Source: Elizabethkingia sp. YR214 (GTDB lineage Bacteria > Bacteroidota > Bacteroidia > Flavobacteriales > Weeksellaceae). Taken from it: 64,000 bases of DNA. Below the pieces are notes generated by a model. It ran no database searches. It saw only the letters and a program-made list of their open reading frames with translations, and had not been told where the DNA came from. Below, in pieces: positions 40,971 to 64,000 of the stretch. Positions within the stretch are counted from its first letter, which is position 1, and the number at the start of each line of letters is the position of its first letter. Where the stretch lies: contig NZ_QBUH01000004.1 in assembly GCF_003058195.1 (NCBI RefSeq), forward strand, positions 62,001 through 126,000, read 5' to 3'. The position numbers and the translations under genes were made by a program.

Positions 40971-41495
40971 CTATTTTCGGTTTTTTACTTTCTTCTTACG
41001 TATCGGTTTATTTTTCACCTCTTTAGCCGGTGGGGCAATCGCTATTATCGAATCTGTCCGGGCTGCTGTTGCACTACTGATGGCGTCTATACCAGACGGA
41101 GCTTCCTCGTGTAAAGGACTTAGTTCCAAAATGTTATTGATTTCCTTAAAATAGTAAGATCCGGATAAATCTTTTGGCTCTTTACAATCCGGACTCATCG
41201 CCCCGTCACTAGTAACAAGTTCAATAATATTATTTTCTCTTACACGGTAAAGGCCTAAGGCATTGTAACATGAAATACCCGTCTGATAATTGAAATTATC
41301 TTCAAACTGTATAAAATGAAACTTAGCCCGCTCATTTGATAGATTAATCCATTTTGCTTTTACCAGAATAGCTTTGCCATTGGGCGCAATATGGTCTATT
41401 TTCCATGTCGTTTTTACAAACGGGTTATATTGTGCATAGCTTACAGGAAGTATAGCCAGTATGATTAATATAGTAGTTATGATACCTTTGTTCAT
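40971..41495 (-). CDS. hypothetical secreted protein
   Basis: 174 aa with a signal peptide (ILPVSYAQ). The N-terminal half resembles a small lipocalin-like beta fold (TWKIDHIAPNGKAILVKAKW); the C-terminus is Lys/Arg rich (KPIRKKKVKNRK). No family recognised. 31 bp downstream of the gene at 41527. Confidence 0.65.
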   Translation of the reverse strand: MNKGIITTILIILAILPVSYAQYNPFVKTTWKIDHIAPNGKAILVKAKWINLSNERAKFHFIQFEDNFNYQTGISCYNALGLYRVRENNIIELVTSDGAMSPDCKEPKDLSGSYYFKEINNILELSPLHEEAPSGIDAISSATAARTDSIIAIAPPAKEVKNKPIRKKKVKNRK

Positions 41496-41526: not shown

Positions 41527-41985
41527 TTACTTTCTCTTTACAGGGAACAATACCTTATTGCTCATTGAATCCTTATTATTAGAGAAATAAAGTCCCGAAG
41601 GTGTTGCTTCCAGCAAAAGTTCGGAAACAGAATAGCTGCCATCGTTGTTGCTGGAATTTATAGTATATACAATCTTACCTTCTGTAAATTTCGGATTTAT
41701 GGTACAGTCCATATCTGTAATCTCATTTTTTCGCATGGTTTCGGGATTACCAGGTTCATTGATGCTAAAGTCTAATGTGAACTTTTGTGGATTAATGATA
41801 AATATAGCTTTTACAGGTTTCTCGGTTTTATCTTTTGTGAAAATCATTCTGTCCGAACTTAGTTTTAGCTCTTGTAGGCATTGCTTTGGATAAGTCTTTT
41901 CAGGTGTGGTATTTTGTGCAGACAGCTGATCAATTCCCGCGATGAGCAAGAATAATGACAGGGATTTAAAAAGGATATATTTCAT
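41527..41985 (-). CDS. hypothetical secreted protein
   Basis: 152 aa from the ATG at 41985 (MKYILFKSLSLFLLIAGIDQ), which gives a signal peptide ending LSAQ; an in-frame ATG at 42036 is unlikely. Two cysteines (CLQEL and DMDCTI) may pair in the periplasm. No family recognised. Confidence 0.65.
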   Translation of the reverse strand: MKYILFKSLSLFLLIAGIDQLSAQNTTPEKTYPKQCLQELKLSSDRMIFTKDKTEKPVKAIFIINPQKFTLDFSINEPGNPETMRKNEITDMDCTINPKFTEGKIVYTINSSNNDGSYSVSELLLEATPSGLYFSNNKDSMSNKVLFPVKRK

Positions 41986-42044
41986 AATAAATGTTTTAGC
42001 TGTAGCTAAAGTTAAGCAGAATTTTTTTCTGAACATCAGTAAAA

Positions 42045-42358: not shown

Positions 42359-43207
42359 TTAATTTGTTGGTTCCATATGGTTTACCTTAGTATGGATGAT
42401 ATCGTAGAATACGGGTGGGTTCGTAGCATCAGGTACAATTCTGTAAGTGAACTCAGCATTGGTAAGGACCAAAACTTCTACATCACGGTTGAAAGGAGCT
42501 CCTGTACCAGCAACTGTTCCGTTCAGGTTTCTGACTTTTCCGTCTGCGGACAAAGTCCATGCTCCGCTGGATCTTAGTACATCATCTAATCCGAAAATTG
42601 TAAACTGCCCGTTTCCTTTGAAGTAAGAATAGCCTACAAAACCTGCCACTCGTGGGTCATTCAGGGCTACAGAATTTCCTGCATTGTCTTTGGCTCCGGT
42701 AGTTTCCCAAGGCGTAGATGCCAAAGTTACCTGTCCGTTAGCCGGTTCTGCATGAGAAGTTCTGGTATGGATAATATCATAATAATTTGCAGGATCACTG
42801 CTGTCGCTATGGATCCTATACGTGAAAATATCTTTGTTTAGCTCTAGGATCTCTACATCGCGGTCTACAAGAACTCTTCCGTCAGGATTCAATACCTTGA
42901 TATTTCTTGTTTTCCCTTGTGCATCTACAGTCCATGTTCCTAATGATCTCAGAACATCATTCAGCCCATAAATGGCAAAGTTTCCATCCGCTCTGAAGTA
43001 GGCCCAACCGACAAACCCGTTTACCCTTGGATCATTAAGGTCTACATTATTCCCGTTTCTATCCTTCGCTCCTGTAGTTTCCCACGGAGTAGAGGCCAGG
43101 ATCTGACTTGGCGTTAACGGGATTTCCGGATTGTTATCGTTGTCACGCGAACATGAAATCAGGACCATGGCCAGCGCTGCTGTCCAAACTAAAAATAACT
43201 TCTTCAT
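42359..43207 (-). CDS. lipoprotein with two tandem DUF4822 domains
   Basis: 282 aa with lipobox LISC (Cys19). Two repeats of about 125 residues share LASTPWETTGAKD, then LNDPRV.GFVG..YF and DVEVL/DVEIL, TYRI and YDIIHT. They correspond to DUF4822, a small secreted beta domain of unknown function. The gene has a Crp/Fnr-type promoter (43282-43325). Confidence 0.85.
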   Translation of the reverse strand: MKKLFLVWTAALAMVLISCSRDNDNNPEIPLTPSQILASTPWETTGAKDRNGNNVDLNDPRVNGFVGWAYFRADGNFAIYGLNDVLRSLGTWTVDAQGKTRNIKVLNPDGRVLVDRDVEILELNKDIFTYRIHSDSSDPANYYDIIHTRTSHAEPANGQVTLASTPWETTGAKDNAGNSVALNDPRVAGFVGYSYFKGNGQFTIFGLDDVLRSSGAWTLSADGKVRNLNGTVAGTGAPFNRDVEVLVLTNAEFTYRIVPDATNPPVFYDIIHTKVNHMEPTN

Positions 43208-43940: not shown

Positions 43941-45578
43941 TTATTGTGCAACACAACGGATACTTGCTCCAAATCCTATTGATCCACTAAGGCTTACAGT
44001 AGGTGTGGTAGTATTTAAACCTAGGTTATAATTAGTATTTCTGTCAATACCTGTTCTAGTACTTGATAAATATTTATAGGCTACACCTCGATTTTGAAAG
44101 GTATAAACATGTGGTAGATTAGTCCCCCCTGTTGGTGTAAAATATCCCTGAAGAGGTAACGTTAATTTAATACTGCTATTTCTCTTACTTGTTAAAACAA
44201 GTCCTGCAGTGTAATTAGTAGTACTATTAGTCCAACTACCGGTAGCACTTCCAGTGGTAGCATCTACTAAATTTTGCAATTCTGTTTGTGTTGGTACACG
44301 GTAACCTGTAGGGCATGGATCATTTGCTGTTTTTACTGGAGCAGCTTCTGTTCCACTATTCCAGGCATTAACAGGTGTGTCATAATATCCATAATAATTA
44401 GTGGATGTTGTTGCTGTTCCGGAGGCTATTGATGTACTACGCCCAAATTGATAATAATTTCCCATTGTAGTGGCCGAAAGATTATCGGGTGTTGTGGAAG
44501 TTGCCCCCAAATTATTTCGCATCCAAATCTTTCCGTTGATTCTGGCGGCTAACTGTCCTTGATGCGTCAAGAATGCATCGGTGGGATTAATGGTAATATT
44601 CAGGTTGTATTTTACTCCGGGAGTAATTTTTAAATTATTAAGTACTGTAAGATCAGTTTGAGTCACAGCGCCTATGGTAATAGATTTGAAAACCAATGTC
44701 CCTGTAGTTGTATTTGCATTCATTGTCATAGGCATTCCTGTTACAATTGGGGTATTGAGTCCGCTGGCAATATTGATTAAAGCTTCTGCTGTACCTCCTG
44801 ATTGTGTAATACTTCCGTCAGACAGCTGTACAGTGGCGTTTAGAATATAAGGTCTTATCCATGCACTCAGTGTGGTAATATTATAACCGGTAGCTGAGGC
44901 ATCTACTTTAGTGGTAATCTGGCTCTGTTTATGTTTCAGTACAATATCCAGATAATTAATACCCTTTCCCGAAACCACCATATCTTTCCTGAAATAAGTG
45001 ACATCATCAAGCCCTCTTACAGTCAGGCTGGCTGTGGACAAAGTCTTATTTGAAGGATTAGAAAAAGTAATAACAGGGAGGGAGGGGGCATCCCATGCAG
45101 AATATGCAATAAAGGTATATTGGCTGCCACCATCCAATGATAATTCCGGAGTACTGGCTTCCTGTCCGTATTTATAATCTCTTTCTGTAACATAATTCCC
45201 GGATGCATCAAATACTGCAACTTTATAAGGTGTACCAGCCGGAAGATCTTCCGTATCAGTCGCATTAATGTTATTTTTATTTGAAGCTGTTTTTGTTTGT
45301 ACTGAAGAAGTTTCAGGTACAAGTTCAGCTACCATTACAAGATCTTTATTCAACTGGATTTCATTTTTTTGTACTTGTAGTCCATTGTTAAAATTTTTAT
45401 TAACAGAAGCTAAAAGTCCTGGCATTTCCTTTTCAAATTCAGTTCCATTCATATTCATTTTAACTACCGCTTTTCCGCCTTCAATAGGATGGTTTTCGGT
45501 ATCCGAATTACGACAAGAAGTCAGAATAAGGAGTATCGTAAGCAGTATAATACTGATGTTTTGTATTTTCTTTTCCAT
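43941..45578 (-). CDS. fimbrillin-like lipoprotein with C-terminal FISUMP domain
   Basis: 545 aa with lipobox LTSC (Cys22). The N-terminal half (KAVVKMNMNGTEFEKEMPG; TPYKVAVFDASGNYVTERDY; LSLDGGSQYTFIAYS) matches Bacteroidetes fimbrillin-like beta domains. The C-terminal 200 residues form a FISUMP (Fib_succ_major) domain: WMRNNLG, YYQFGR, DPCPTGYRVPTQTELQNL, and a final SIRCVAQ. Probably surface-exposed and adhesive. A paralogue is cut by the right edge at 63222. Co-transcribed with the 65-aa gene upstream. Confidence 0.85.
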   Translation of the reverse strand: MEKKIQNISIILLTILLILTSCRNSDTENHPIEGGKAVVKMNMNGTEFEKEMPGLLASVNKNFNNGLQVQKNEIQLNKDLVMVAELVPETSSVQTKTASNKNNINATDTEDLPAGTPYKVAVFDASGNYVTERDYKYGQEASTPELSLDGGSQYTFIAYSAWDAPSLPVITFSNPSNKTLSTASLTVRGLDDVTYFRKDMVVSGKGINYLDIVLKHKQSQITTKVDASATGYNITTLSAWIRPYILNATVQLSDGSITQSGGTAEALINIASGLNTPIVTGMPMTMNANTTTGTLVFKSITIGAVTQTDLTVLNNLKITPGVKYNLNITINPTDAFLTHQGQLAARINGKIWMRNNLGATSTTPDNLSATTMGNYYQFGRSTSIASGTATTSTNYYGYYDTPVNAWNSGTEAAPVKTANDPCPTGYRVPTQTELQNLVDATTGSATGSWTNSTTNYTAGLVLTSKRNSSIKLTLPLQGYFTPTGGTNLPHVYTFQNRGVAYKYLSSTRTGIDRNTNYNLGLNTTTPTVSLSGSIGFGASIRCVAQ

Positions 45579-45619
45579 AATGTTGGTTGTTATTTCTTCG
45601 TATTATTTATCTTTTTGTA

Positions 45620-45817
45620 TTACCAGTCAATGCCTTCGTCTCTTTCAGGATCTGTATCCCATTCGTGGCTTATATTTCCGCTTAGGTCGCCTGGCTTTAC
45701 CGTAGCAGACCCTGCGGCAATACCTTGTTCCATTCTGATCATTGTTACTTCTAAAGTCGGAGCCATATAAGCGCTCTTTTCTTGTGTTGTTTCGTTGTTG
45801 TTCATTTCCTTTTTCAT
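45620..45817 (-). CDS. 65-aa companion peptide of the fimbrillin-like gene
   Basis: Hydrophilic peptide starting MKKEMNNNETTQEKSAYMAP, with MEQGIAAGSATVKPGD in the middle and an acidic end (EWDTDPERDEGIDW). No signal peptide. Peptides of this look (APTLEV, MEQGIAAGSA) are common beside flavobacterial surface-protein genes, but I know of no established function. 41 bp separate it from the lipoprotein gene, and a -7 element lies 64-71 bp upstream. Confidence 0.75.
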   Translation of the reverse strand: MKKEMNNNETTQEKSAYMAPTLEVTMIRMEQGIAAGSATVKPGDLSGNISHEWDTDPERDEGIDW

Positions 45818-45880
45818 TGTTGTTTATTTTGTTGTTTTATTGTAATACGTTTGTGTTTTTTTTGTTCCGTTTTTCTATGG

Positions 45881-45888
45881 CAAATCTA
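45881..45888 (-). promoter_or_regulatory. -7 element of the fimbrillin operon
   Basis: TAGATTTG on the minus strand, perfect TAnnTTTG, giving a leader of about 57 nt. A 15-bp palindrome ACTTG-TACTG-CAAGT lies at 45907-45921, in the -33 region. Confidence 0.6.
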
Positions 45889-46080
45889 CCAGCGTTCTGC
45901 CGAGAAACTTGTACTGCAAGTCTACTTCAATTTTATAAAATATTGATTTTCAGTTTATTGTATTGGTTATTGCAGTGTGGGTGAAGTGAGCTTAAAAATG
46001 ATAATCCATCAATTTTTCACCCTGTTTGATACTTATTTTTATGGCTTGATTCTGTTTTTTGTATTGTTCGTTGGGCGAGA

Positions 46081-46725
46081 TTAATCGCTAAATAAATAAG
46101 CCTGATCTGTCAGGGTAATTTTGTTTCTGCTCAGCTGTAACAATCCTTTTTCTTCTAACTGTTTTAGTAATCGGGATACAACAACGCGGGCAGTTAATAA
46201 TTCTTTTGCCAGTTGCTGATGTGTAATGCTAATGGATCTGGATTGCGTGATCTCTGCTTTATTTTTCAGAAAGCTCAGTAAGCGTTCATCTGTTTTTTTA
46301 AAAGCAGAATCTATAACATTCAGCAGATCTTCATAGCGGTTCACAAACAGCAGTAAAACATAATCCATCCATTGTGGATATTCTCTTATAAAAAGCTTGG
46401 CTTTCTGAATCGGCAGAAAAAAGATTTCGGCCTCTTCTTCTACTTCTACTTTTACTTTGCTGGTCACATTGTACAGGCTGCCCCAGAAGGGCAGCACACA
46501 GGTTTCTCCTTTTTTGATGTAATAGAGCAGTATCTCGCGGTCTTCTTCTTCCTTTCGGATTACTTTTAGCAGTCCTTTGGTAACAATAGGAATAGCGTTG
46601 GCATAGGCGTTCTCTCTCAGGATAACGGTTCCGGCTTTATAGACTTTCTTTATGCTGTTTTGGTGTAACTGTTCTACAATCTCGGGAGTATATTTAAAGG
46701 CTGTAATCTTTCTTAAATTTTCCAT
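46081..46725 (-). CDS. Crp/Fnr family transcriptional regulator, paralogue A
   Basis: 214 aa: cNMP-binding-like barrel (AGTVILRENAYANAIPIVTKG, slightly shortened here; REILLYYIKKGETCVLPF) and winged HTH (ITHQQLAKELLTARVVVSRLLKQ). No N-terminal or central Cys cluster for an Fe-S centre. It is much closer to 62108-62731 (shared REILLYYIK.GE.C, EYPQW.DY, VVSRLLKQLE) than to 13405-13971. Its own promoter carries the GTAACA-WW-TGTTAC palindrome, suggesting autoregulation. Confidence 0.9.
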   Translation of the reverse strand: MENLRKITAFKYTPEIVEQLHQNSIKKVYKAGTVILRENAYANAIPIVTKGLLKVIRKEEEDREILLYYIKKGETCVLPFWGSLYNVTSKVKVEVEEEAEIFFLPIQKAKLFIREYPQWMDYVLLLFVNRYEDLLNVIDSAFKKTDERLLSFLKNKAEITQSRSISITHQQLAKELLTARVVVSRLLKQLEEKGLLQLSRNKITLTDQAYLFSD

Positions 46726-46865
46726 GATTGCAGCATTTGTGTGAGTATTCTATTTCGGGTGGTACATTTTTTCTTTTCTTCTTTAGTGGTTTCATTAGTT
46801 CATCATATTTATTGTTCAATCTTTATTTGGAAAAATTGGCAGTGTTTTTTTTGCCTAAGCGGTCG

Positions 46866-46909
46866 CAAAGATGTGGTTGATTTTTAGCGTTGTTTGTAAC
46901 AAATGTTAC
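46866..46909 (-). promoter_or_regulatory. Crp/Fnr-type operator and -7 element of the crp paralogue A gene
   Basis: Palindrome GTAACA-AA-TGTTAC (46896-46909), centre exactly 33 bp upstream of the centre of minus-strand -7 element CATCTTTG (46873-46866). Leader about 130 nt. Confidence 0.7.
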
Positions 46910-46972
46910 TTGTCATTGTTTTATTTTCATTATTTTTTTATGAAAATATATTATTGTGGCATTGGTGTTTTA

Positions 46973-47089
46973 TCATTTGTTAAATAATAAGTGGCTGCTG
47001 TCAGAAGATTTTTCATCAAGCCATTCACCCACCAAAGAGAGCATAAGCAGGGTAATCCCTACCAATATGAGTTGGGCATAATTTTTCAT
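46973..47089 (-). CDS. possible 38-aa membrane peptide
   Basis: ATG at 47089. MKNYAQLILVGITLLMLSLV is a strong membrane segment, followed by an acidic GEWLDEKSSDSSHLL. A small real gene is plausible because of the membrane-helix/charged-tail pattern and the A-rich sequence before the start. In tandem with the ORF at 47204-47281. Confidence 0.4.
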   Translation of the reverse strand: MKNYAQLILVGITLLMLSLVGEWLDEKSSDSSHLLFNK

Positions 47090-47203
47090 TTGTATATGTT
47101 TTTTAGGTTTGTTTTTTCAGAATTCCGGGCAAATATTCCCGAAAGAAATGCCCGAAATATGACTAGTGTATCGCGGGATTATTTTTTATAAAATGAAGCT
47201 TTT

Positions 47204-47281
47204 TTATAGCAGAGAGATTCCTAATAACCATAAAAAAATAAAGCTTACACAGGTCAGGATAAATTTGGTATCATTTCTCAT
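47204..47281 (-). CDS. possible 25-aa membrane peptide
   Basis: ATG at 47281. The peptide starts MRNDTKFILTCVSFIFLWLL and ends GISLL: a single membrane helix with a short charged N-terminus. Too short for normal gene calling; recognised only by composition. The rest of 46726-47521 shows only the crp promoter and the bipartite block at 47400-47436. Confidence 0.35.
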   Translation of the reverse strand: MRNDTKFILTCVSFIFLWLLGISLL

Positions 47282-47399
47282 CGTATTTGTTATTTGGTTT
47301 ATACACTAATTGATTTGATCGGTTTTATTTTCTGGTACAAATCTATTCGTGTTATGGAAGAAAGACATTACTGTAATTATACTCCATTGTTTTAATGTG

Positions 47400-47436
47400 T
47401 TGATTTTCAATATGTTTATAAGGGTATTGCAGTGTG
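47400..47436 (+). promoter_or_regulatory. bipartite conserved block upstream of the TPR-HTH gene
   Basis: TTGATTTTCA-N15-TATTGCAGTGTG, also found at 45943-45979 with identical spacing but unrelated N15. A -7-like TATCTTTA is at 47493-47500. May be an operator shared by the TPR-HTH and fimbrillin promoters. Confidence 0.4.
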
Positions 47437-47521
47437 TTTGCAGTATAGTGAAAAATGAATAACAGACTGGATTTTTAAACAAAAATTCTGTTTATCTTTA
47501 ACAATAGTAAAATCATAATGA

Positions 47522-48937
47522 ATGTTGCGTAAGATTTCCGGAGTGAAAATTTTGTTATTTTCATTCCTTTTGTTGGCTCAGAACTACAGGTCTCAGGACT
47601 TCTCATTTTTTCCGGAACCGATTAAAACATCTGCCGAATATTATAACAAAGGCGAATTTGCAAAAGCCATGGCTTTTAATGTAGAAGCTTTAAAAAAATA
47701 TGAAGCACTAAAGGATAAAGAGGGAATGAGTGCTGCATATGCCAATATTGCTTCTTTGCTTTTTTCGGTTGGAAAACTAAAGGAAAGCATGCAGTATCTG
47801 GATAATGCCAAAGCGGAAATGAATAAGGATAATGCGCTGTCCCAGACTCGTTTTTATGGTGAATATGCCCGAATCTATACCAAGTTGGGGCTTCCGGATC
47901 AGTCGAATGATTATTTTGATAAGGCTTTGCACTATGCCGGGAAAATAAAAGATCCAAGACAACAGATGGTTTCTGTACTGTATCTTTATTTATGGAAACG
48001 GTTTAATTTCCTGAGTCAGGAAGATTCACTGCAGGCGATTGAAAAAAAGCTGATCAGAATAATGCCGAGCGCTATTACTTATAGTAAGATAGCTGATCGT
48101 TTTATTGAGAAAAAAACGCAGCTGGATTCAGCAGATTATTATCTGAACAAAGCTGTACAGACACCAGATTATGCTATTGTTACAGTACAGGGAATTGTTC
48201 AGTTTAGTTATGGTAATCTCTATAATGCAAAAAAGGAATACAGCCAGGCACTTGGTGCTTATCAACAATCATTATCCGCTTTTCAGAAAACAGAATACCG
48301 GACACAGATCCGCAATGTATACGATTCTATTGCCAGTACTTATCATTATCTGGATGATCCGAAAATGGCGAATGAATACCTGAAAAAGTACAAAGCCGTG
48401 AATGTTACGATTAAAAATGAAGAAAAAGAGGCGGTTACGATGGCTGTAAACAAGCTTTTGCAGGAAGAAAAACATGACAAGCAAAAAGAGAAAAAACAGT
48501 TGTACTTTATCTTTGCAGGCTGTATTGTCCTACTTCTTTTAGTGGTTTCCGGAATATTACGGATGCAGCGCTCGAAGCAGTTAAAAAAAGAAAGTCTGCT
48601 GGAAGAGCAGACGCTGGAAAATCTAAAACTGAAAAAGCAGCTGAATGCTTCTGCAGATCAGCTGATACAACTGGCGGAAATCAACAGTCCATCTTTTCTG
48701 GCGCAGTTTAAAGAAACTTATCCAGATTTTATAGAGCGCTTATTGGCACATGAGCCGGATCTTTCGGAATATGACCTGAAACTCTCAGCTAATATTAGGT
48801 TGGGGCTGAGCACAAAACAAATTGCTCAATACGAAATTATTGCTCTGAGAACGGCAGAGAGCCGAAAATACAGACTAAAAAAGAAACTGAAACTGGATTC
48901 TGATATCAGTCTGAATAAATGGATATTGGAATTGTAA
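47522..48937 (+). CDS. TPR-repeat membrane regulator with C-terminal HTH
   Basis: 471 aa. Signal/anchor at the N-terminus, about six TPR repeats in the periplasmic part (residues 30-310, e.g. AMAFNVEALKKYEALKDK and EYSQALGAYQQSLSAFQK), one membrane helix (LYFIFAGCIVLLLLVVSGIL), a coiled coil, and a C-terminal LuxR-like HTH (IRLGLSTKQIAQYEIIALRT). This is the Bacteroidetes design of a membrane-bound transcription regulator that senses from outside. It likely controls nearby surface genes (inference). Confidence 0.82.
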   Translation: MLRKISGVKILLFSFLLLAQNYRSQDFSFFPEPIKTSAEYYNKGEFAKAMAFNVEALKKYEALKDKEGMSAAYANIASLLFSVGKLKESMQYLDNAKAEMNKDNALSQTRFYGEYARIYTKLGLPDQSNDYFDKALHYAGKIKDPRQQMVSVLYLYLWKRFNFLSQEDSLQAIEKKLIRIMPSAITYSKIADRFIEKKTQLDSADYYLNKAVQTPDYAIVTVQGIVQFSYGNLYNAKKEYSQALGAYQQSLSAFQKTEYRTQIRNVYDSIASTYHYLDDPKMANEYLKKYKAVNVTIKNEEKEAVTMAVNKLLQEEKHDKQKEKKQLYFIFAGCIVLLLLVVSGILRMQRSKQLKKESLLEEQTLENLKLKKQLNASADQLIQLAEINSPSFLAQFKETYPDFIERLLAHEPDLSEYDLKLSANIRLGLSTKQIAQYEIIALRTAESRKYRLKKKLKLDSDISLNKWILEL

Positions 48938-49108: not shown

Positions 49109-49987
49109 ATGAATAAAACAGGAATTCTTTTTCTTTTAATATCCGTATTTTCCTTTGGACAACGCTTTCTTCTGGATTCGAAAATAAACGCTATTGTAAA
49201 AGATAAAAAAGCAACGGTCGGGGTTTCGGTACTGGGCTTTGAAAATGCTTTTGCTTATAACAAAAACGGGAACGAAAAGCTTCCGATGCAAAGTGTATTC
49301 AAATTCCATATTGCCAGTGCGGTTTTGGATCTTGTAGACAAGGGAACTCTTTCTCTGGATCAGAAAATTTTGGTTAAAAAGGAAGACCTGCTCGAAAATA
49401 CATGGTCGCCATTACGCGATAAATATCCTGCCGGAAACGTGAATGTGCCACTAAGTGAGATTATTGAATATACAGTTGCATTGAGCGATAATAACGGTTG
49501 TGATTTTTTACTAAGGCTAATAGGTGGTATGGAGGCTGTTCAGAAATTTATGAATGGCAAAGGTGTGAAAGGTTTTCAGATTAAATATAATGAAGAAGAT
49601 ATGCACAAGGACTGGAACGCACAGTATGAAAATTACAGTACACCTAATTCCGCTGTACAGGTTTTGAAGAAATTTTATAATGGTAAATTGCTTTCCAAAA
49701 CATCTACAGACTATCTGATGAAAGTTATGCTGGGAACTAAAACCGGATTGAATAAAATGGTTGAGCAGCTGCCCAAAGACACTCCGGTAGCCAGAAAGAC
49801 TGGTTCTTCAGGTAAGAATAAAGACGGGCTTACAGGGGCTGAAAATGAGATTGGAATTATTACACTACCCAACGGAAATCATTATGCATTGGCTGTATTC
49901 GTAGTGAACTCTATGGAATCTGATACCGTCAACTGTAAAATGATTTCGGATATTTCCAAAGCTGTATGGGATGGCTTTAATAAATAG
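49109..49987 (+). CDS. blaCME: class A extended-spectrum beta-lactamase (CME/PER/VEB-like)
   Basis: 292 aa with a signal peptide (ISVFSFGQ). Active-site SxxK is Ser62-V-F-Lys65, SDN is 126-128, omega-loop Glu is in YNEEDMHKDW near 162, and KTG is 230-232 (ARKTGSSG). The omega-loop form and SDNNGCD are those of subclass A2 (CME, PER, VEB). Elizabethkingia carries chromosomal CME enzymes, which fits this context; the exact allele cannot be named. Hydrolyses penicillins and cephalosporins in the periplasm. Monocistronic, with its own Crp/Fnr-type promoter. Confidence 0.85.
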   Translation: MNKTGILFLLISVFSFGQRFLLDSKINAIVKDKKATVGVSVLGFENAFAYNKNGNEKLPMQSVFKFHIASAVLDLVDKGTLSLDQKILVKKEDLLENTWSPLRDKYPAGNVNVPLSEIIEYTVALSDNNGCDFLLRLIGGMEAVQKFMNGKGVKGFQIKYNEEDMHKDWNAQYENYSTPNSAVQVLKKFYNGKLLSKTSTDYLMKVMLGTKTGLNKMVEQLPKDTPVARKTGSSGKNKDGLTGAENEIGIITLPNGNHYALAVFVVNSMESDTVNCKMISDISKAVWDGFNK

Positions 49988-51398: not shown

Positions 51399-51423
51399 TA
51401 ACAGAATTTAAATTATGTGTCAC

Positions 51424-52389
51424 ATGAAAGATGTAATAAAAGCCCATTTTTCGGGATTATTGTTTTACGTATTATTATTTATGAGCAGCCTTATATACGG
51501 GCAAATGCCTGCACCCTATAAAGTAAAAGTAGGAGATACAGAGGTAACTGCACTGTTGGATGGTGTGCTTCCTATAGATGCGGAGAAACTTTTCTTTACC
51601 AACGAACCCGGAAAGCCAACGCAGTTATTAGAAAATGTATTTATCAAAAACCCTGTAGAAGTTAGTATAAATGCTTATCTGGTAAAAACCAACGGAAAGC
51701 TGGTATTAATAGATACCGGGGCCGGAGGATTATTTGGAAATGCAGGCGGAAAATTGGTACAAAGCCTGAAACAAATTGCTGTAACTCCGGAAGAAATCAC
51801 CGATATCCTGCTTACCCATATCCATGCAGACCATTCCGGCGGGTTACTTATGAAAGGAAAGGTAATATTTCCCAATGCTGTTATACATGTAAATAAAGCA
51901 GAAATGGATTTCTGGCTGAATGAAAAGAATGCTAAAAAGGCTGATGAAAAAGCGATGGGAGCAAGTCCACGTACCTTTTCAAACGCGAATGATATGCTAA
52001 TCCCGTATCTGAAGGCGGGGAAAGTAAAAAGCTTTGAAAAAGAAAAACAGGAAATTGTGCCGCATATTTATACAATGCCTACCGGAGGACATACACCCGG
52101 ACATACAGTATATGTATTGGAAAGCAAAGGAGAAAAAATGTATTTCTGGGGAGATCTGGTACACATGCAAGGCTTGCAGTTTGCAGAACCTACGCTGGAA
52201 AATCATTTTGATGTTGATCACAAATCGGGAATTGAAAATCGTGAAAGATACTATGATGATGCCGCAAAAAATAACTATCTGATCGGAGCTCCCCATATTT
52301 CGTACCCGGGAATAGGGCGTGTGAAAAAAGAAGGAAACAAATATGTATGGTATCCGGTACCCTTTAGCCTTACGGGGAGAACTCAGTAA
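51424..52389 (+). CDS. secreted MBL-fold hydrolase (lactonase/MPH-like)
   Basis: About 321 aa from 51424 with signal peptide (SSLIYGQ). Metal motif HIHADHSGG (about residues 132-140), later His in GHTPGHTVYV, and Asp in FWGDLVH. The overall pattern is of AHL-lactonase/methyl-parathion-hydrolase-like enzymes (MBL-fold with long N-terminus VTALLDGVLPID), not of B1-B3 carbapenemases. Substrate is unknown. Confidence 0.85.
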   Translation: MKDVIKAHFSGLLFYVLLFMSSLIYGQMPAPYKVKVGDTEVTALLDGVLPIDAEKLFFTNEPGKPTQLLENVFIKNPVEVSINAYLVKTNGKLVLIDTGAGGLFGNAGGKLVQSLKQIAVTPEEITDILLTHIHADHSGGLLMKGKVIFPNAVIHVNKAEMDFWLNEKNAKKADEKAMGASPRTFSNANDMLIPYLKAGKVKSFEKEKQEIVPHIYTMPTGGHTPGHTVYVLESKGEKMYFWGDLVHMQGLQFAEPTLENHFDVDHKSGIENRERYYDDAAKNNYLIGAPHISYPGIGRVKKEGNKYVWYPVPFSLTGRTQ

Positions 52390-58604: not shown

Positions 58605-59093
58605 CTAGTGGGGAAGCTTTTCCTGTAAGAATCCATAAACCCATGTTCCGGCAATGGCACTAAGAAGGGTAACAATAATGACTGTAGCTCCCATTCCGAT
58701 TTGTGCGAAGAAAGATCCGGGGCAAGCTCCTGTTAGTGCCCAGCCAAGGCCAAAGATCAAACCACCATAGATCTGTCCTTTGCTGAATTTCTTTGGGGCT
58801 ATGCTAATTGGACTTCCGTCGATTGTCTTTATATTGAATCTTTTAATAATTTGAACGGAAATAATGCCGGTTAATACTGCACTTCCAATTACTTTATACA
58901 TGAAAAAAGATTGCAGGCGGAACATTTCCTGTATGCGGAACCAACTGATTACCTCTGATTTTATAAATATAATACCGAATAATATACCCACAATCAGATA
59001 TCTGATATTGGTGGACCATTTATCTGCCGAAGAATTCTCCTTAACACATATCGGTTCAGTCAATTGTACTTTATTGTCTGTATTTTGTTTCAT
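58605..59093 (-). CDS. YeeE/YedE-type (DUF6691) membrane protein
   Basis: 162 aa with about four to five helices. GLIFGLGWALTGACPGSFFAQIG is the conserved motif with the Cys essential for thiosulfate in YeeE. It is half the size of E. coli YeeE; together with the neighbour at 59105 it would make one unit. The N-terminus (LTEPICVKENSSADKW) is soluble. Confidence 0.87.
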   Translation of the reverse strand: MKQNTDNKVQLTEPICVKENSSADKWSTNIRYLIVGILFGIIFIKSEVISWFRIQEMFRLQSFFMYKVIGSAVLTGIISVQIIKRFNIKTIDGSPISIAPKKFSKGQIYGGLIFGLGWALTGACPGSFFAQIGMGATVIIVTLLSAIAGTWVYGFLQEKLPH

Positions 59094-59104
59094 TGTATTT
59101 GTGT

Positions 59105-59668
59105 TTAAAGTGATAAGATGATAGGTAATATTAGATTAGCCATAATAAAACCGCCAATCATAAAACATATTGTGGCAATCAGTGAAGGCCATTGTAAATT
59201 AGATAATCCCATTATGGCATGTCCACTGGTACAACCTCCGGCATAGCGAGAGCCGAATCCAACTAAAAATCCACCCACAACTATCATCAGGAAACCTTTT
59301 AAAGTAAGAAGGGATGGCCAGTTCAGAATGTCTTCAGGAACCAGATTATTATAATTGGTGATACCATAGCCAGCAAGTTCGGCTTTTAGATCTGGACTGA
59401 CTTCGATAGGGTGAGGATTGGCCAAAAATACTGAGGCAATTACTCCGCCGAAGAAAATTCCCATAACAAAAACCCAATTCCAGATTTCTTTTTTCCAGTC
59501 ATATTTAAAAAACGGAATATTGGCCGGAATACAGGATGCACAAATATTACGTAATGTTCCGCTGATACCAAAAGACTTGTTTCCTAAAATAAGCAAGGCA
59601 GGAACAGTTAATCCAATTAATGGTCCTGCTATATACCATGGCCATGGTTGTTTAATAAGTTCTAACAT
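59105..59668 (-). CDS. YeeE/YedE family membrane protein
   Basis: 187 aa with about five helices. VGFGSRYAGGCTSGHAIMGLS holds the second conserved Cys motif of the family. Probably a heteromeric thiosulfate or polysulfide carrier with its 58605 neighbour 11 bp downstream. Confidence 0.88.
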   Translation of the reverse strand: MLELIKQPWPWYIAGPLIGLTVPALLILGNKSFGISGTLRNICASCIPANIPFFKYDWKKEIWNWVFVMGIFFGGVIASVFLANPHPIEVSPDLKAELAGYGITNYNNLVPEDILNWPSLLTLKGFLMIVVGGFLVGFGSRYAGGCTSGHAIMGLSNLQWPSLIATICFMIGGFIMANLILPIILSL

Positions 59669-59743
59669 TATTCTCTGTATTTTCGTTAATCAATTGAAAA
59701 TTAATATTATTATTTTTCATTAAATTTATTTGAAATAATCTTC

Positions 59744-61156
59744 CTACAGTCCGGAACAAGATATTTCGGTCATTATATTATCCTGATCCCCAAGCCAGTC
59801 TTTCATACCTCCTGCAAAATTTTTGATGTTTCTAAAGCCATTTTTGACCAAAACGGAATAAGCAATTGCAGAACGGTCACCCGACTGGCAGTGAATAATG
59901 ACCTGCTTGTCTTTGCTTATTTTATCCAGATTATCTGGTAATGTTCCCAAAAAAACATGATCTGCTCCGGCAATATGTCCGGCTTTGTATTCTGATTCGC
60001 TTCGTACATCTACAATCTGTATATCAGGCCGATGTATATATGTTTTCATTTCATCCAGAGAGACAATATCAACTGTTTGAAGCTCAATATCTAAATCATT
60101 GATGTTAGAAATATATCCATATATATTATCCAGTCCTACACGCATAAGCTTTCTGGTGAGGTCTTCTATTTGCTGATCATCACAAATCAGAATAAATTCT
60201 TCCTGATAGCTGAGTAACCATCCTGCCCATGTGGAAAAAGAGTTGTTTCCCTGAATGTTTAAACTACCGGGAATAAAACCCTGAGCAAAATCCATTTTAT
60301 TTCGGGCATCTATAATGCTTATACCTTTTTCATAAGTATTTTTAAACTCCTCTTTGTTTAGTTTAGGATGTTTGGGTACAGATATCAGTAACGGACGTTC
60401 TGTTTTGTTCAAATGTTTCATCATGGCAAAATACTTCGGTGGTTCCGGCTGAGCATCTAAAAGATTCTCAGCAAATTTTTTTTCGTTTTCTCCATACTGA
60501 AATGCCCAGTTTCGGATTTTTTCATAGCCCACAGTAGAGTTATATACCGCTCCAAGAGCTTTCCCGCAGGAAGATCCCGCACCATGGGCCGGCCATACCT
60601 GAACGTAGTCTGGTAATGCTGAGAATTTTTTCAGAGACTGAAACATCTGTTGTGCTCCGGCTTCTTTTGTGCCTATAAGTCCGGCAGCCTTTTCCAATAA
60701 ATCCGGACGGCCAATATCTCCCACGAATACGAAGTCTCCGGTAAATACCATCACAGGTTTCTCCGTAGCCGGATGATCTGTAAGCAAAAAGCTGATGCTT
60801 TCGGGGGTATGTCCTGGTGTATGCAATACTTCCAGAGAAAGATTTCCGACACGGATTACATCCCCTTCCTTCAGTCCTGTATGTGGAAACTGGTATTGCC
60901 AGTCTTCGCCGCCTTCATCCGAGAGGTACAGTTCTGCAGCTGTTACTTCTGCCAGTTCTCTGGAGCCTGAAAGAAAGTCTGCATGTATGTGGGTTTCTGT
61001 AATTTTTGTTATACGGAGATTGTTTTGTCCGGCAATATCCAGATAAATATCAATATCTCTCTGAGGGTCTATTACAATGGCTTCTCCTGTTGCCTGACAG
61101 CCGATGATATAGCTTCCCTGTGCTAAACTTTTGTCATAAACATGTTGAAAAAACAT
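59744..61156 (-). CDS. MBL-fold persulfide dioxygenase fused to two rhodanese domains
   Basis: 470 aa. The MBL part (1-250) is ETHE1-like: THIHADFLSGS, HTPGHTPESI, GDFVFVGDIGRPDLL and WPAHGAGSSCGKALG. Rhodanese 1 (about 265-365) has Cys in LICDDQQIEDL with an abnormal loop and is probably inactive; rhodanese 2 (about 370-465) has an intact loop HCQSGDRSA. Predicted to oxidise glutathione-type persulfide and move sulfane sulfur. Confidence 0.93.
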   Translation of the reverse strand: MFFQHVYDKSLAQGSYIIGCQATGEAIVIDPQRDIDIYLDIAGQNNLRITKITETHIHADFLSGSRELAEVTAAELYLSDEGGEDWQYQFPHTGLKEGDVIRVGNLSLEVLHTPGHTPESISFLLTDHPATEKPVMVFTGDFVFVGDIGRPDLLEKAAGLIGTKEAGAQQMFQSLKKFSALPDYVQVWPAHGAGSSCGKALGAVYNSTVGYEKIRNWAFQYGENEKKFAENLLDAQPEPPKYFAMMKHLNKTERPLLISVPKHPKLNKEEFKNTYEKGISIIDARNKMDFAQGFIPGSLNIQGNNSFSTWAGWLLSYQEEFILICDDQQIEDLTRKLMRVGLDNIYGYISNINDLDIELQTVDIVSLDEMKTYIHRPDIQIVDVRSESEYKAGHIAGADHVFLGTLPDNLDKISKDKQVIIHCQSGDRSAIAYSVLVKNGFRNIKNFAGGMKDWLGDQDNIMTEISCSGL

Positions 61157-61199
61157 AACTTTTATTTTAGATCGTTAATGATTTATTTTTTTAATACTA

Positions 61200-61248
61200 C
61201 AAATTTCGGAATAACAATTTCTCTGTACAGCTACTTTTGTCACATAAG
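61200..61248 (-). promoter_or_regulatory. Crp/Fnr-type operator and -7 element (MBL-rhodanese operon)
   Basis: Plus-strand GCTACTTTTGTCAC (61230-61243), inside a 25-bp block shared with 62092-62116. Its centre is 33 bp from the centre of the minus-strand -7-like GAAATTTG (61207-61200). Confidence 0.65.
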
Positions 61249-61254
61249 CAATAC

Positions 61255-62046
61255 TTAGTTCAGCAGGGCTTCTTTAATGATGATGTAAATACCCATTATC
61301 AGTATAAACCATCCAAAAGCGGGCTTTAGCTTTTTACCATCGATTTTAGTTGAAATGTAGCTGCCGACAATTATACCAATAATAGCAAGTCCTGTAATAC
61401 TCAGGATAAAATTCCAATGAATATTGATGTGTGGCAAAGAAAATAAGAAACCTACCAGCGAATTGATGGCTATAATTACCAGGGATGTTCCGATTGCCGT
61501 TTTCATGGAAAGCTTCATAAAGTTAACCAGAGCAGGAATAATTAAAAATCCGCCTCCGGCACCGATAAGACCGGTAAGTATACCGATAAGTACACCTTCG
61601 GTAATTACCAAAGGATAACTGAACTGTATTTTCTGTGATGAGATTATTTCTTTATTCTTTTTAATCATACCATATGAAGCAAAAATCATAAGTATGGCAA
61701 ATAACAGCAATAAGAAAATACTTTTTGTAATCATAAAATCTCCTATGTTAAGTATATTCTGCGGAATAACAGGAATAATATAGGTTCTTGTGAAAAAAAC
61801 AGAAATAACAGACGGAATACCGAAAACGAAAACGGTTTTAAGATCTACCAGACCTTTTCTGAAATAGGACACGGAACCTGTAAGACTGGTAGCGCCTACG
61901 ATAAAGAGAGAATATGCCGTTGCAGAAACAGCACCCAGATGAAAAAGGTATACCAGAACCGGAACGGTGAGAATGCTGCCGCCACCACCGATTAATCCCA
62001 ATGATATTCCTATAAGAACTGAAGCTAAATATCCTGCTGTATCCAT
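61255..62046 (-). CDS. TSUP (TauE/SafE) sulfite-type exporter
   Basis: 263 aa with eight helices. Motifs: ISLGLIGGGGSILTVPVLVYL and GILTGLIGAGGGFLIIPALV. The cluster with persulfide dioxygenase suggests export of the sulfite or thiosulfate product. Its promoter lies in the 3' end of the crp gene. Confidence 0.9.
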   Translation of the reverse strand: MDTAGYLASVLIGISLGLIGGGGSILTVPVLVYLFHLGAVSATAYSLFIVGATSLTGSVSYFRKGLVDLKTVFVFGIPSVISVFFTRTYIIPVIPQNILNIGDFMITKSIFLLLLFAILMIFASYGMIKKNKEIISSQKIQFSYPLVITEGVLIGILTGLIGAGGGFLIIPALVNFMKLSMKTAIGTSLVIIAINSLVGFLFSLPHINIHWNFILSITGLAIIGIIVGSYISTKIDGKKLKPAFGWFILIMGIYIIIKEALLN

Positions 62047-62067
62047 TTATTTTTAAGTTTGCTACTG

Positions 62068-62116
62068 CAAAATTGCATCAACTGGAAAACCTGTACAGCT
62101 ACTTTAGTCACATAAG
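62068..62116 (-). promoter_or_regulatory. Crp/Fnr-type operator and -7 element (TSUP gene)
   Basis: Plus-strand GCTACTTTAGTCAC (62098-62111) inside the shared block; the minus-strand -7-like CAATTTTG is at 62075-62068. Centres are 33 bp apart, identical to 61200-61248. The operator includes the stop codon of the crp gene. Confidence 0.65.
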
Positions 62117-62731
62117 GATAATTTTGTTTCTCCCGAGTTGAAGAACACCATTGTCTTCAAGTTGTTTTAAGAGTCGCGAAACAACAGATCTGGCTGTTCC
62201 CAATTCATTAGCCAGCTGTTCGTGGGTAATGTTTAGGGTGTCTTTACCGGTAAGTTCTTTCTTTTTGTATAGTAGCGATAGCAAGCGCTCATCAACTTTT
62301 TTAAAGGCTATTGAGTTGATAACATCCAGTAATTCTTCAAAACGCTTATGATACAAACGAAAGATATAATCCAGCCACTGTGGGTATTCTTTAATAAATA
62401 GAGATACTTTGTCCATAGGCAGGAAAAGGATTTCTGCATCTTCTTCGACTTCAGCTTTAACTTTGCTGGGTTCATTATGCAGACCGCCTAGAAAAGACAT
62501 AATACAACTTTCTCCGGTTTTGATGTAGTATAATAAAATCTCTCTGCCATCTTCCTCTGTACGGATTACTTTCAAGGTTCCTTTCATTACAATTGGGATA
62601 GCCTGAATACAGGAATTTTCATGAAGGATAATAGTTCCGGCATCGTAGTTTTTCTGCATGCCATATTCATACAGCTTTTCAACCAGACCGGGAGAAGACT
62701 TAAATGATATTATCTGTTCCAGAGATTCCAT
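62108..62731 (-). CDS. Crp/Fnr family transcriptional regulator, paralogue B
   Basis: 207 aa: barrel (DAGTIILHENSCIQAIPIVMKG; REILLYYIKTGESC) and winged HTH (ITHEQLANELGTARSVVSRLLKQ). Closely resembles the 46-kb paralogue over its length. Position at the head of the sulfur cluster and operators nearby make it the likely activator of these genes. It has a perfect -7 element (TATCTTTG, 62750-62757) but no operator in the -33 region, so no autoregulation of the same kind. Confidence 0.9.
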   Translation of the reverse strand: MESLEQIISFKSSPGLVEKLYEYGMQKNYDAGTIILHENSCIQAIPIVMKGTLKVIRTEEDGREILLYYIKTGESCIMSFLGGLHNEPSKVKAEVEEDAEILFLPMDKVSLFIKEYPQWLDYIFRLYHKRFEELLDVINSIAFKKVDERLLSLLYKKKELTGKDTLNITHEQLANELGTARSVVSRLLKQLEDNGVLQLGRNKIILM

Positions 62732-63221: not shown

Positions 63222-64000
63222 ATGAAAATGGAAAAACGAAAGACACAATTTATTCTGAAGCGTACAGGCTTTGGAATAACGATTAGTGCAAGCCTATTAT
63301 TGATCTTATTTGCAATATTCTCTTGTCGCAGCAGCGATGCAGATAACAAAGTAACTGCGGGTGGCACTGCAAATGTGAAGATCAATATAGAAGGGGAAGC
63401 TTTTGATGATATTGCAGACCTTGGCGGACAGGCTTCTTTGAGCAAGAATATCTCGCAAGCGGCACCTCTTGTGCAGAGAAAAGAAATTCCTTTTAACAAT
63501 GATTTTACGTTGGTAGCAGAACTGTCACCTGTGAAAACTTCGGTAAGCAATCAGGCTCAGGCTTCCTTAAGCGGTAATCTCATGGCAGCAACCGGACCAA
63601 CACCTTTGGGCGCAGGGATCAGATATAAAGTAGTGGTTTTCCGGTCTACAGGAGAATATGTAACAGAGCGGAATTATATTCGAGGTCAGGAAAATAGTAC
63701 AGCAGATCTTAATTTGGATGGAGGCAGCAGCTATACATTCATTGTTTACTCTGTAAAAAGTCAGACCAATTTACCAGATGTTACCTATACCAATACTTCT
63801 AATAAAACATTAGCAACAGCTAGTATTTCGGGATTGGCGAATACAGTAGATTTTATGTACTACCGAAAAGATACATCGGTATCCGGAGATCAGACTAATT
63901 ATCTGAATGTTGTATTGTTACATAAGCTAAGCCTTATTACAACGACAATAGATGCTTCGGCTACAGGTTATAATATTACCGCTGTTACAGCCAATATAGA
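63222..64000 (+). CDS. fimbrillin-like lipoprotein paralogue (3' end outside window)
   Basis: 259 codons visible, open to the right edge. Start at 63222 (MKMEKRK) or 63228. Lipobox IFSC (Cys35). It aligns with 43941-45578: KVVVFRSTGEYVTERNYIRG, LNLDGGSSYTFIVYS, MYYRKDTSVSGDQTNYLNVVL (one residue trimmed) and TIDASATGYNIT have direct counterparts there. A C-terminal FISUMP domain is expected but not visible. Confidence 0.82.
   Translation, partial: MKMEKRKTQFILKRTGFGITISASLLLILFAIFSCRSSDADNKVTAGGTANVKINIEGEAFDDIADLGGQASLSKNISQAAPLVQRKEIPFNNDFTLVAELSPVKTSVSNQAQASLSGNLMAATGPTPLGAGIRYKVVVFRSTGEYVTERNYIRGQENSTADLNLDGGSSYTFIVYSVKSQTNLPDVTYTNTSNKTLATASISGLANTVDFMYYRKDTSVSGDQTNYLNVVLLHKLSLITTTIDASATGYNITAVTANI

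What the first reader, a model, noticed from the sequence alone, without database searches (positions are those of the whole stretch)
43941..48937. Surface-protein locus: 65-aa peptide, FISUMP lipoprotein, Crp/Fnr and TPR-HTH regulator
A small acidic peptide without signal sequence is co-transcribed with a fimbrillin/FISUMP lipoprotein, beside an autoregulated Crp/Fnr gene and a membrane-bound TPR-HTH regulator. A second lipoprotein paralogue lies 18 kb away near the second crp paralogue. The pairing of duplicated lipoprotein with duplicated regulator suggests an uncharacterised system; the role of the peptide is open.
Basis: partly seen in the sequence, partly recalled or inferred. Interest (0 to 1): 0.55.

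Follow-up and report, generated by a model that had tools for sequence, protein, structure and literature searches.

The report
Small peptides paired with surface pilins
A tiny, unnamed protein sits beside a pilin-like lipoprotein, and this pair recurs dozens of times in Elizabethkingia and Sphingobacterium with each peptide's tail matched to its own partner, which suggests an unstudied way these bacteria build and swap their surface proteins.

Summary
The 65-aa peptide belongs to a family without a convincing Pfam or NCBIfam match: 25 copies here, 5-32 in four other genomes of the genus, none in the sixth, and several per genome in Sphingobacterium. Of 212 peptide ORFs examined, 186 sit next to a ~500-680 aa lipoprotein on the same strand; in 26 the gene order is swapped, so the peptide is not a cis leader ORF. 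The window lipoprotein is modelled as a type V fimbrillin fold plus a FISUMP domain. The peptide has a constant N-terminal half (Y..P...E.E.GIAAGSA) and a variable acidic tail. The tail tracks the lipoprotein between genera (r=0.68), the constant half hardly (r=0.16). At three loci, including this one, species differ in tail plus lipoprotein with the break inside the peptide gene. Conserved copies show dN/dS 0.10. Best reading: a cognate accessory peptide of a fimbrillin, carried as one exchangeable cassette. Where the peptide acts is unknown.

The parts
45620..45817 (-). 65-aa peptide: constant N-terminal half (to S37, ..YMAPTLEVTMIRMEQGIAAGS) and variable acidic tail (ATVKPGDLSGNISHEWDTDPERDEGIDW)
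   Evidence: ORF; 24 further tblastn matches in the own genome; family alignments A1, A4; dN/dS 0.10 in 20 syntenic comparisons of other copies, not of this one
43941..45578 (-). 545-aa lipoprotein: lipobox Cys22, fimbrillin-fold N-domain (model residues ~34-349), C-terminal FISUMP domain (346-543)
   Evidence: Pfam PF09603 E=1.1e-12; AlphaFold2 model pLDDT 77.6; best VIA matches are Bacteroidales fimbrillins and putative adhesins, Z up to 14.4
45579..45619 (-). 41-bp gap between peptide stop and lipoprotein start
   Evidence: over 160 peptide-first pairs the median gap to the longest ORF is 28 bp
46081..46725 (-). Crp/Fnr regulator 1, 263 bp upstream of the peptide; a neighbour, not a constant part
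   Evidence: Pfam; next to the pair also in E. occulta L088 (97% identical); no pair directly beside its 69% relative in L240
47522..48937 (+). TPR - transmembrane - HTH regulator, divergent; an optional associate
   Evidence: Pfam TPR; 16 matches in the own genome, itself included, 12 within 5 kb of a peptide copy
63222..64000 (+). Paralogous lipoprotein without a peptide, cut by the window's end (it runs on for another 934 bases); a tandem copy follows beyond the window; the two share the N-domain and differ in the FISUMP part
   Evidence: (1.13 kb at 96% DNA identity, then divergence), in locus L030
62108..62731 (-). Crp/Fnr regulator 2: first gene of a sulfur-metabolism-like operon, not part of the system

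Best explanation
The peptide is a dedicated accessory protein of its neighbouring fimbrillin-type lipoprotein, and the two form one cassette. The constant N-terminal half is read by something shared by all copies; the variable acidic tail, usually ending in a hydrophobic-acidic-aromatic motif, recognises the cognate fimbrillin. This keeps many parallel surface pilins apart while each is exported or assembled. Shown: the family, the adjacency in either gene order, purifying selection on conserved copies, the tail-lipoprotein correspondence and the joint difference of tail and lipoprotein at three loci; the fold of the lipoprotein is predicted. Inferred: direct binding, the shared reader of the N-terminal half, the cellular step, and surface display. 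I favour a step at or after export, because the tail tracks the fimbrillin domain best and the start of the mature protein least, but this is weak.
For: 186 of 212 peptide ORFs adjacent to a lipoprotein, 160 peptide-first and 26 lipoprotein-first, against 7 of 62 window ORFs and 46 of 324 ORFs in the sister-genome loci by the same loose lipoprotein rule. Distances of tail and lipoprotein: r=0.74 over 182 pairs, 0.68 between genera, 0.74 between genera with opposite gene order; constant half 0.45 and, between genera, 0.16. Three loci where flanks and constant half are conserved but tail and lipoprotein differ strongly, the upstream match ending -52, -7 and +23 nt from the end of the constant half. 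dN/dS 0.10, constant half 0.13, tail 0.07. C-terminal motif: -1 hydrophobic 86%, -2 acidic 58%, -3 hydrophobic 79% of 182. In an unnamed family of the same class a related peptide was found in 4 of 121 genomes, next to a lipoprotein each time; Mfa_like_1 fits two of the four above and two below its cut-off.
Against: Linkage alone gives part of the correspondence, since neighbours are inherited together. 5 of 31 intact own-genome lipoproteins have no peptide and 3 more only follow another lipoprotein that has one. Some peptides are orphans, conserved in several genomes. L186/L210, a comparison of neighbouring paralogues: nearly the same tail with lipoproteins 45% identical. For a Sphingobacterium-group pair, the Elizabethkingia peptide with the nearest tail has one of the closest 10% of lipoproteins in only 28% of 83 cases. 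The constant half also exceeds every permutation, though with a much lower r. A read-through peptide+lipoprotein model was uninformative (peptide pLDDT below 40). No export signal was found.
Confidence: 0.55

Rival explanations
1. Translational or regulatory leader: the small ORF matters in cis for expression of the downstream lipoprotein (coupling or attenuation), its product does nothing.
For: In 160 pairs the peptide is upstream, with a median gap of 28 bp, and some overlap the longest lipoprotein ORF.
Against: In 26 pairs the peptide is downstream of the lipoprotein; amino-acid sequence under strong purifying selection (dN/dS 0.10); conserved protein motif across bacterial families; tail matched to lipoprotein.
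Confidence: 0.08
2. Signal peptide for the regulator: the peptide or its processed tail is sensed by the TPR part of the membrane TPR-HTH regulators and reports on the lipoprotein.
For: 12 of 16 TPR-HTH matches lie within 5 kb of a peptide copy; regulator-peptide-lipoprotein repeats in L180, L206, L228.
Against: Only 29 of 182 pairs have such a regulator within 2.5 kb upstream; the peptide has no recognised export signal; the tail varies with the lipoprotein, which regulation alone does not explain.
Confidence: 0.15
3. Cytosolic escort: the peptide stays inside and holds the nascent prelipoprotein for Sec.
For: No signal sequence in the window peptide; mostly one copy per lipoprotein; adjacency in either order.
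Against: The tail tracks the fimbrillin domain (windowed cross-genus r up to 0.62) better than the start of the mature protein (about 0.35) or most FISUMP windows (before mis-called pairs were dropped); a general escort would not need a cognate tail.
Confidence: 0.25
4. Co-inherited passenger: peptide and lipoprotein travel together only because they are neighbours, with unrelated functions.
For: Correlated trees are expected from linkage; tail and lipoprotein change together at loci.
Against: Adjacency survives a change of gene order and is found in distant bacterial families; the tail carries the correspondence much more than the constant half.
Confidence: 0.15

Closest known systems
Type V fimbrillin superfamily (FimA, Mfa1-4; Pfam Mfa_like_1 PF13149)
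   Same: The modelled lipoprotein N-domain has the fimbrillin fold (4h40 Z 14.4, Mfa3 5nf4 Z 10.4, Mfa2 5nfi Z 10.1, FimA 4q98 Z 9.4); lipobox.
   Different: Carries a C-terminal FISUMP domain; no second fimbrillin gene recognised beside it in the window; paired with a small peptide that I do not know from any described fimbrial locus (recalled, not tested).
FISUMP / Fib_succ_major (PF09603, TIGR02145)
   Same: C-terminal 200 residues pass the Pfam cut-off.
   Different: TIGR02145 below its cut-off (27.4 of 41.65 bits); joined to a fimbrillin-fold domain.
Double-glycine leader peptides exported by C39-peptidase ABC transporters (recalled class; Pfam PF03412 for the peptidase)
   Same: Constant N-terminal half plus variable rest is the architecture of a precursor peptide.
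   Different: No GG site but GIAAGSA; of three own-genome C39 stretches fetched, two hold small GG-type ORFs with another N-terminus and none holds this peptide; in sister genome G061 one copy lies about 5 kb from a C39 gene (L252).
RRNPP peptide-TPR-HTH signalling (recalled)
   Same: Small peptide near TPR-HTH regulators.
   Different: Regulator order is TPR-TM-HTH with the HTH at the C-terminus; the peptide has no Sec signal; the regulator is optional.

Membership tests
Type V fimbrillin superfamily | Fimbrillin beta-sandwich fold | tested here: met
   N-domain of the model: the best Foldseek and VIA matches are fimbrillins and putative adhesins of Bacteroidales, Z 14.4 to about 8; first unrelated row Z 8.6; Foldseek TM-scores by query length 0.22-0.31 among these
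Type V fimbrillin superfamily | Lipobox at the N-terminus | tested here: met
   Cys22 of the window protein, read from the sequence; invariant in the 70 aligned lipoproteins, but the 69 relatives had been picked with a lipobox rule
Type V fimbrillin superfamily | Match to a curated fimbrillin HMM | tested here: inconclusive
   Mfa_like_1 at E<=0.01 in 12 of 70 scanned, not in the window protein itself
Type V fimbrillin superfamily | Operon with anchor and tip subunits | tested here: inconclusive
   No fimbrillin match in the neighbours scanned: 42359-43207 is DUF4822 (Mfa1-family E=0.001 only on its first 27 residues), 40971-41495 and 41527-42036 without NCBIfam match; not every neighbour was scanned
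Type V fimbrillin superfamily | Protease-triggered polymerisation by strand exchange | not testable with these tools
   needs protein work
FISUMP domain (PF09603) | Score above curated cut-off | tested here: met
   49 bits, cut-off 33.9
C39 / double-glycine leader peptides | GG-type cleavage site and a C39 exporter beside it | tested here: not met
   No GG in the constant half; no copy in the three own-genome C39 stretches fetched; one copy about 5 kb from a C39 gene in G061
RRNPP signalling | Cytosolic N-terminal HTH followed by TPR (recalled) | tested here: not met
   Window regulator has N-terminal TPR, a hydrophobic stretch at about 325-347 and a weakly recognised C-terminal HTH
cis-acting leader ORF | Always 5' of the controlled gene | tested here: not met
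   26 pairs with the peptide downstream
SusR / FimS regulators (NCBIfam) | Score above cut-off | tested here: not met
   31.2 of 480 and 25.5 of 600 bits

The most novel reading that the evidence does not exclude
The peptide is exported by an unknown route that reads the Y..P...GIAAGSA half, is cut there, and its free tail (-3 hydrophobic, -2 acidic, -1 aromatic) completes the groove of the cognate fimbrillin as a separate donor or capping strand, so that a fimbrillin whose own C-terminus is taken up by a FISUMP domain can be finished on the surface.
Probability: 0.12. Interest if true: 0.85.

Novelty: new variant of a known kind. Interest (0 to 1): 0.6.

Why it matters
A signal-less small protein family with 25-32 copies in four of the six Elizabethkingia genomes searched, each tail matched to its own fimbrillin lipoprotein and changing with it between species, has no model in Pfam or NCBIfam. 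If the partnership is physical, it adds a missing component to the biogenesis of Bacteroidota surface pilins. It would also explain how one cell can hold about thirty parallel surface proteins, and it makes the question testable with a pull-down and a single-gene deletion. The joint change of tail and lipoprotein also marks a route of surface variation in a genus of opportunistic pathogens.

Tried and rejected
Crp duplication paired with lipoprotein duplication: rejected. Common promoter motif upstream of the peptides: the recalled Bacteroidota -33/-7 pattern occurs upstream of 2 of 25 copies, shuffles 1.8; the -7 element alone 11 of 25, shuffles 7.4 on average and up to 13; nothing claimed. 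No Rfam match at gathering threshold and no tRNA in the window. C39 exporter link: exporters occur in the five genus genomes with peptides and not in the sixth, which has none, but that genome is a small 390-contig assembly; two of three own-genome C39 stretches hold other, GG-type peptides, and only in G061 (L252) does a copy of this family lie in the same stretch, about 5 kb off; not supported. The peptide-lipoprotein read-through model is uninformative. Surface-export signal: I read passages of PMC5080379 (K-(D/E)2 or Q-A-(D/E)2; SDDFE for F. johnsoniae); positions after the lipobox Cys here are often R/S, S, T/S, D, with acidic residues at +5 in 48% of 182, so only a partial likeness; surface exposure is not claimed as shown. 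Donor-strand idea: passages of PMC5954841 read (FimA groove freed by protease; donor strand of Mfa1 unsettled); kept only as the novel case. Literature: searches (listings and abstract openings only) showed no paper describing this peptide; most subscription journals are not in that library. Counts per genome are lower bounds, because at most 15 candidates per genome were scored.

Rows dropped: from 190 automatic pairs four mis-calls were removed (three regulators, one thioredoxin-like protein, judged by eye) to give 186; so 26 of 212 peptides count as unpaired. These four and one truncated lipoprotein (L193) were dropped from the distance tests, leaving 182 of 187. Of the 22 peptides without any automatic pair, 8 are cut off by the end of the DNA held, one has a frameshifted lipoprotein (L111), and in L232 a lipoprotein starts 398 bp downstream, outside my limit; of the four mis-calls one (L206) has a lipoprotein 95 bp upstream. 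The 212 rows have 200 distinct peptide ends; at least two rows are the same gene seen again at a locus end (L092/L199, L087/L218). The window-wise correlations and the first Mantel test were made before the mis-calls were dropped. One pair without an anchor (L196) was dropped. For the lipoprotein alignment A5 I gave 69 of the 83 named-locus lipoproteins plus the window's; for the read-through alignment A6, 18 of 23 in-frame cases. The dN/dS set is 20 comparisons of 11 own-genome copies, picked from the conserved-allele ones.
Full report
OBSERVATION. The four genes stand at the stated coordinates. The window is part of a 4.05-Mb genome in 26 contigs. Named relatives of the peptide come from Elizabethkingia occulta, E. 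miricola, E. argenteiflava, many Sphingobacterium and one Rhinopithecimicrobium (72 loci).

THE PEPTIDE FAMILY. tblastn finds 25 copies in the own genome, itself included. A profile of these finds 28 matches, 26 of them at E of 1.5e-6 or better. In the genus 5 of 6 genomes have 5-32 copies and one has none. In 60 genomes of the bacterial family only members of the own genus match (3 of 60). In 395 genomes of the phylum 6 match with the first profile: the own one, two of one other genus (8 and at least 15 copies), and three with a single weak match; with a wider profile 7 match. By that other genus is Sphingobacterium. Y, P, the second E of E.E and S of the constant half are each present in 99% of 187 sequences. 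No Pfam or NCBIfam family fits: among 35 members only one or two at a time give weak hits to unrelated families, best E 0.002 for one member.

ADJACENCY. In the own genome 23 of 25 copies lie directly before a lipoprotein of one family. The two others are a copy 414 bp from a contig end, whose counterparts in three sister genomes also lack a lipoprotein, and a copy without the usual C-terminus. Conversely, of 31 intact lipoproteins in the genome 23 have a peptide directly before them, 3 follow behind such a lipoprotein (one after 410 bp), and 5 have none; one more is broken. Over the loci examined 186 of 212 peptide ORFs have the lipoprotein next door on the same strand, 102 of 120 in Elizabethkingia and 84 of 92 in the Sphingobacterium group (which includes one locus of another family); 160 are peptide-first (median gap 28 bp) and 26 lipoprotein-first (gap 30-116 bp), 25 of these in Sphingobacterium. 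The same loose lipoprotein rule of 62 other window ORFs and 46 of 324 ORFs in the sister-genome loci, whose surroundings are enriched in such lipoproteins. In an unnamed family of the same class 4 of 121 genomes have a related peptide, next to a lipoprotein in all four; Mfa_like_1 fits two of these above its cut-off and two below.

THE LIPOPROTEIN. The AlphaFold2 model (70 sequences, mean pLDDT 77.6) has a confident all-beta N-domain and a less certain FISUMP part. The best structural matches of the N-domain are Bacteroidales fimbrillins and putative adhesins (4h40 Z 14.4 over 237 residues, rmsd 5.0; 4k4k Z 14.0; Mfa3 10.4, Mfa2 10.1, FimA 9.4); the first unrelated row has Z 8.6, so the lower ones are close to background while the leading ones are not. 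Sequence profiles agree: of 70 proteins scanned, Mfa_like_1 in 12 and Fib_succ_major in 9.

COGNATE TAIL. I split the peptide after the invariant S. Over 182 pairs, tail distance and lipoprotein distance correlate with r=0.74, and 0.68 when only Elizabethkingia-Sphingobacterium comparisons are used; the constant half gives 0.45 and 0.16. In comparisons between genera with opposite gene order the tail still gives 0.74. None of 1000 within-genus permutations reached any of these values, including the low ones for the constant half. A limit: for a Sphingobacterium peptide, the Elizabethkingia peptide with the nearest tail belongs to one of the nearest 10% of lipoproteins in only 28% of 83 cases, median rank 13%.

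NATURAL SWAPS. At the window locus TPR-HTH (92%), Crp (97%) and the downstream DUF4822 gene (93%) are conserved with E. occulta, but the lipoprotein is 41% identical; the close DNA match runs from upstream into the peptide gene and ends at the border of constant half and tail (-7 to +14 nt, depending on BLAST setting). At a second locus a ..EWWK tail with an ..LRCIQDK lipoprotein stands against a ..DYDF tail with an ..SVAAPNT lipoprotein (23% identity, match ends -52 nt). At a third the match ends at +23 nt; there the two tails are diverged forms of one type (lipoproteins 46%). Of 72 between-species comparisons with conserved upstream DNA, 67 keep the same allele and 5 differ. Four of the five concern these three loci. 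The fifth, L186/L210, compares neighbouring paralogues: nearly the same tail, lipoproteins 45% identical, which speaks against strict matching. Within the own genome two lipoprotein pairs share 1.1-1.7 kb at 96-97% DNA identity and then diverge in the FISUMP part. In 20 syntenic comparisons of 11 conserved copies the peptide shows dN/dS 0.10; these were picked as conserved, so exchanged copies are not in that figure.

REGULATORS. TPR-HTH matches cluster with the peptides (12 of 16 within 5 kb, 0.8 expected, binomial 5e-13), and regulator-peptide-lipoprotein repeats exist in three sister genomes, but most pairs have none nearby (29 of 182). Crp-2 leads an operon with TauE (Pfam) and MBL/rhodanese and YeeE-like genes (NCBIfam matches below cut-off). 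In E. occulta a lipoprotein also lies beside it; in G060 none does. The Crp-1 relative in G060 has no pair between it and the DUF4822 gene, although a pair lies about 4.3 kb away beyond the TPR-HTH gene.

MECHANISM. The simplest reading is an accessory peptide with a generic recognition half and a specific tail for its fimbrillin. Binding, compartment and step are inferred. I see no Sec signal and no GG site, and no exporter was found beside the own-genome copies, so either it acts in the cytosol or an unknown route exports it. The read-through model did not help.

NOVELTY. The lipoprotein is of a known kind; the matched peptide is, by the searches listed, undescribed. I call the whole a new variant of a known kind.

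Noticed in passing
window 49109-49987 (+): Class A beta-lactamase of the CGA/CIA family, above the NCBIfam cut-off (564 of 510 bits), next to the TPR-HTH gene.
   Followed up: partly
window 51415-52389 (+): MBL-fold protein nearest AidB-type lactonases, below the cut-off.
   Followed up: no
window 58605-62731 (-): Crp-TauE-MBL/rhodanese-YeeE/YedE-like operon, also seen in E. occulta (L241) and G060 (L242).
   Followed up: partly
L030 5222-6934 and 6983-8641 (first one starts at window 63222): Tandem lipoproteins with nearly the same N-domain and different FISUMP ends, no peptide; E. occulta has one copy here.
   Followed up: partly
L016 4001-4171, L097, L090, L189: Peptide without the usual C-terminus (..G.GITSGP..), orphan, nearly the same in four genomes: conserved although it looks decayed.
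   Followed up: no
L113 4501-4662, L115, L148: Sphingobacterium peptides of this family with a histidine-rich tail and no lipoprotein beside them; by eye L148 has a sigma-factor-like gene next to it.
   Followed up: no
L108 4477-4659: Orphan peptide of this family between genes that by eye look like sigma factor/anti-sigma pairs.
   Followed up: no
L246 (own genome C11:41500-46500): Broken lipoprotein of the family, in several frames, without a peptide.
   Followed up: no
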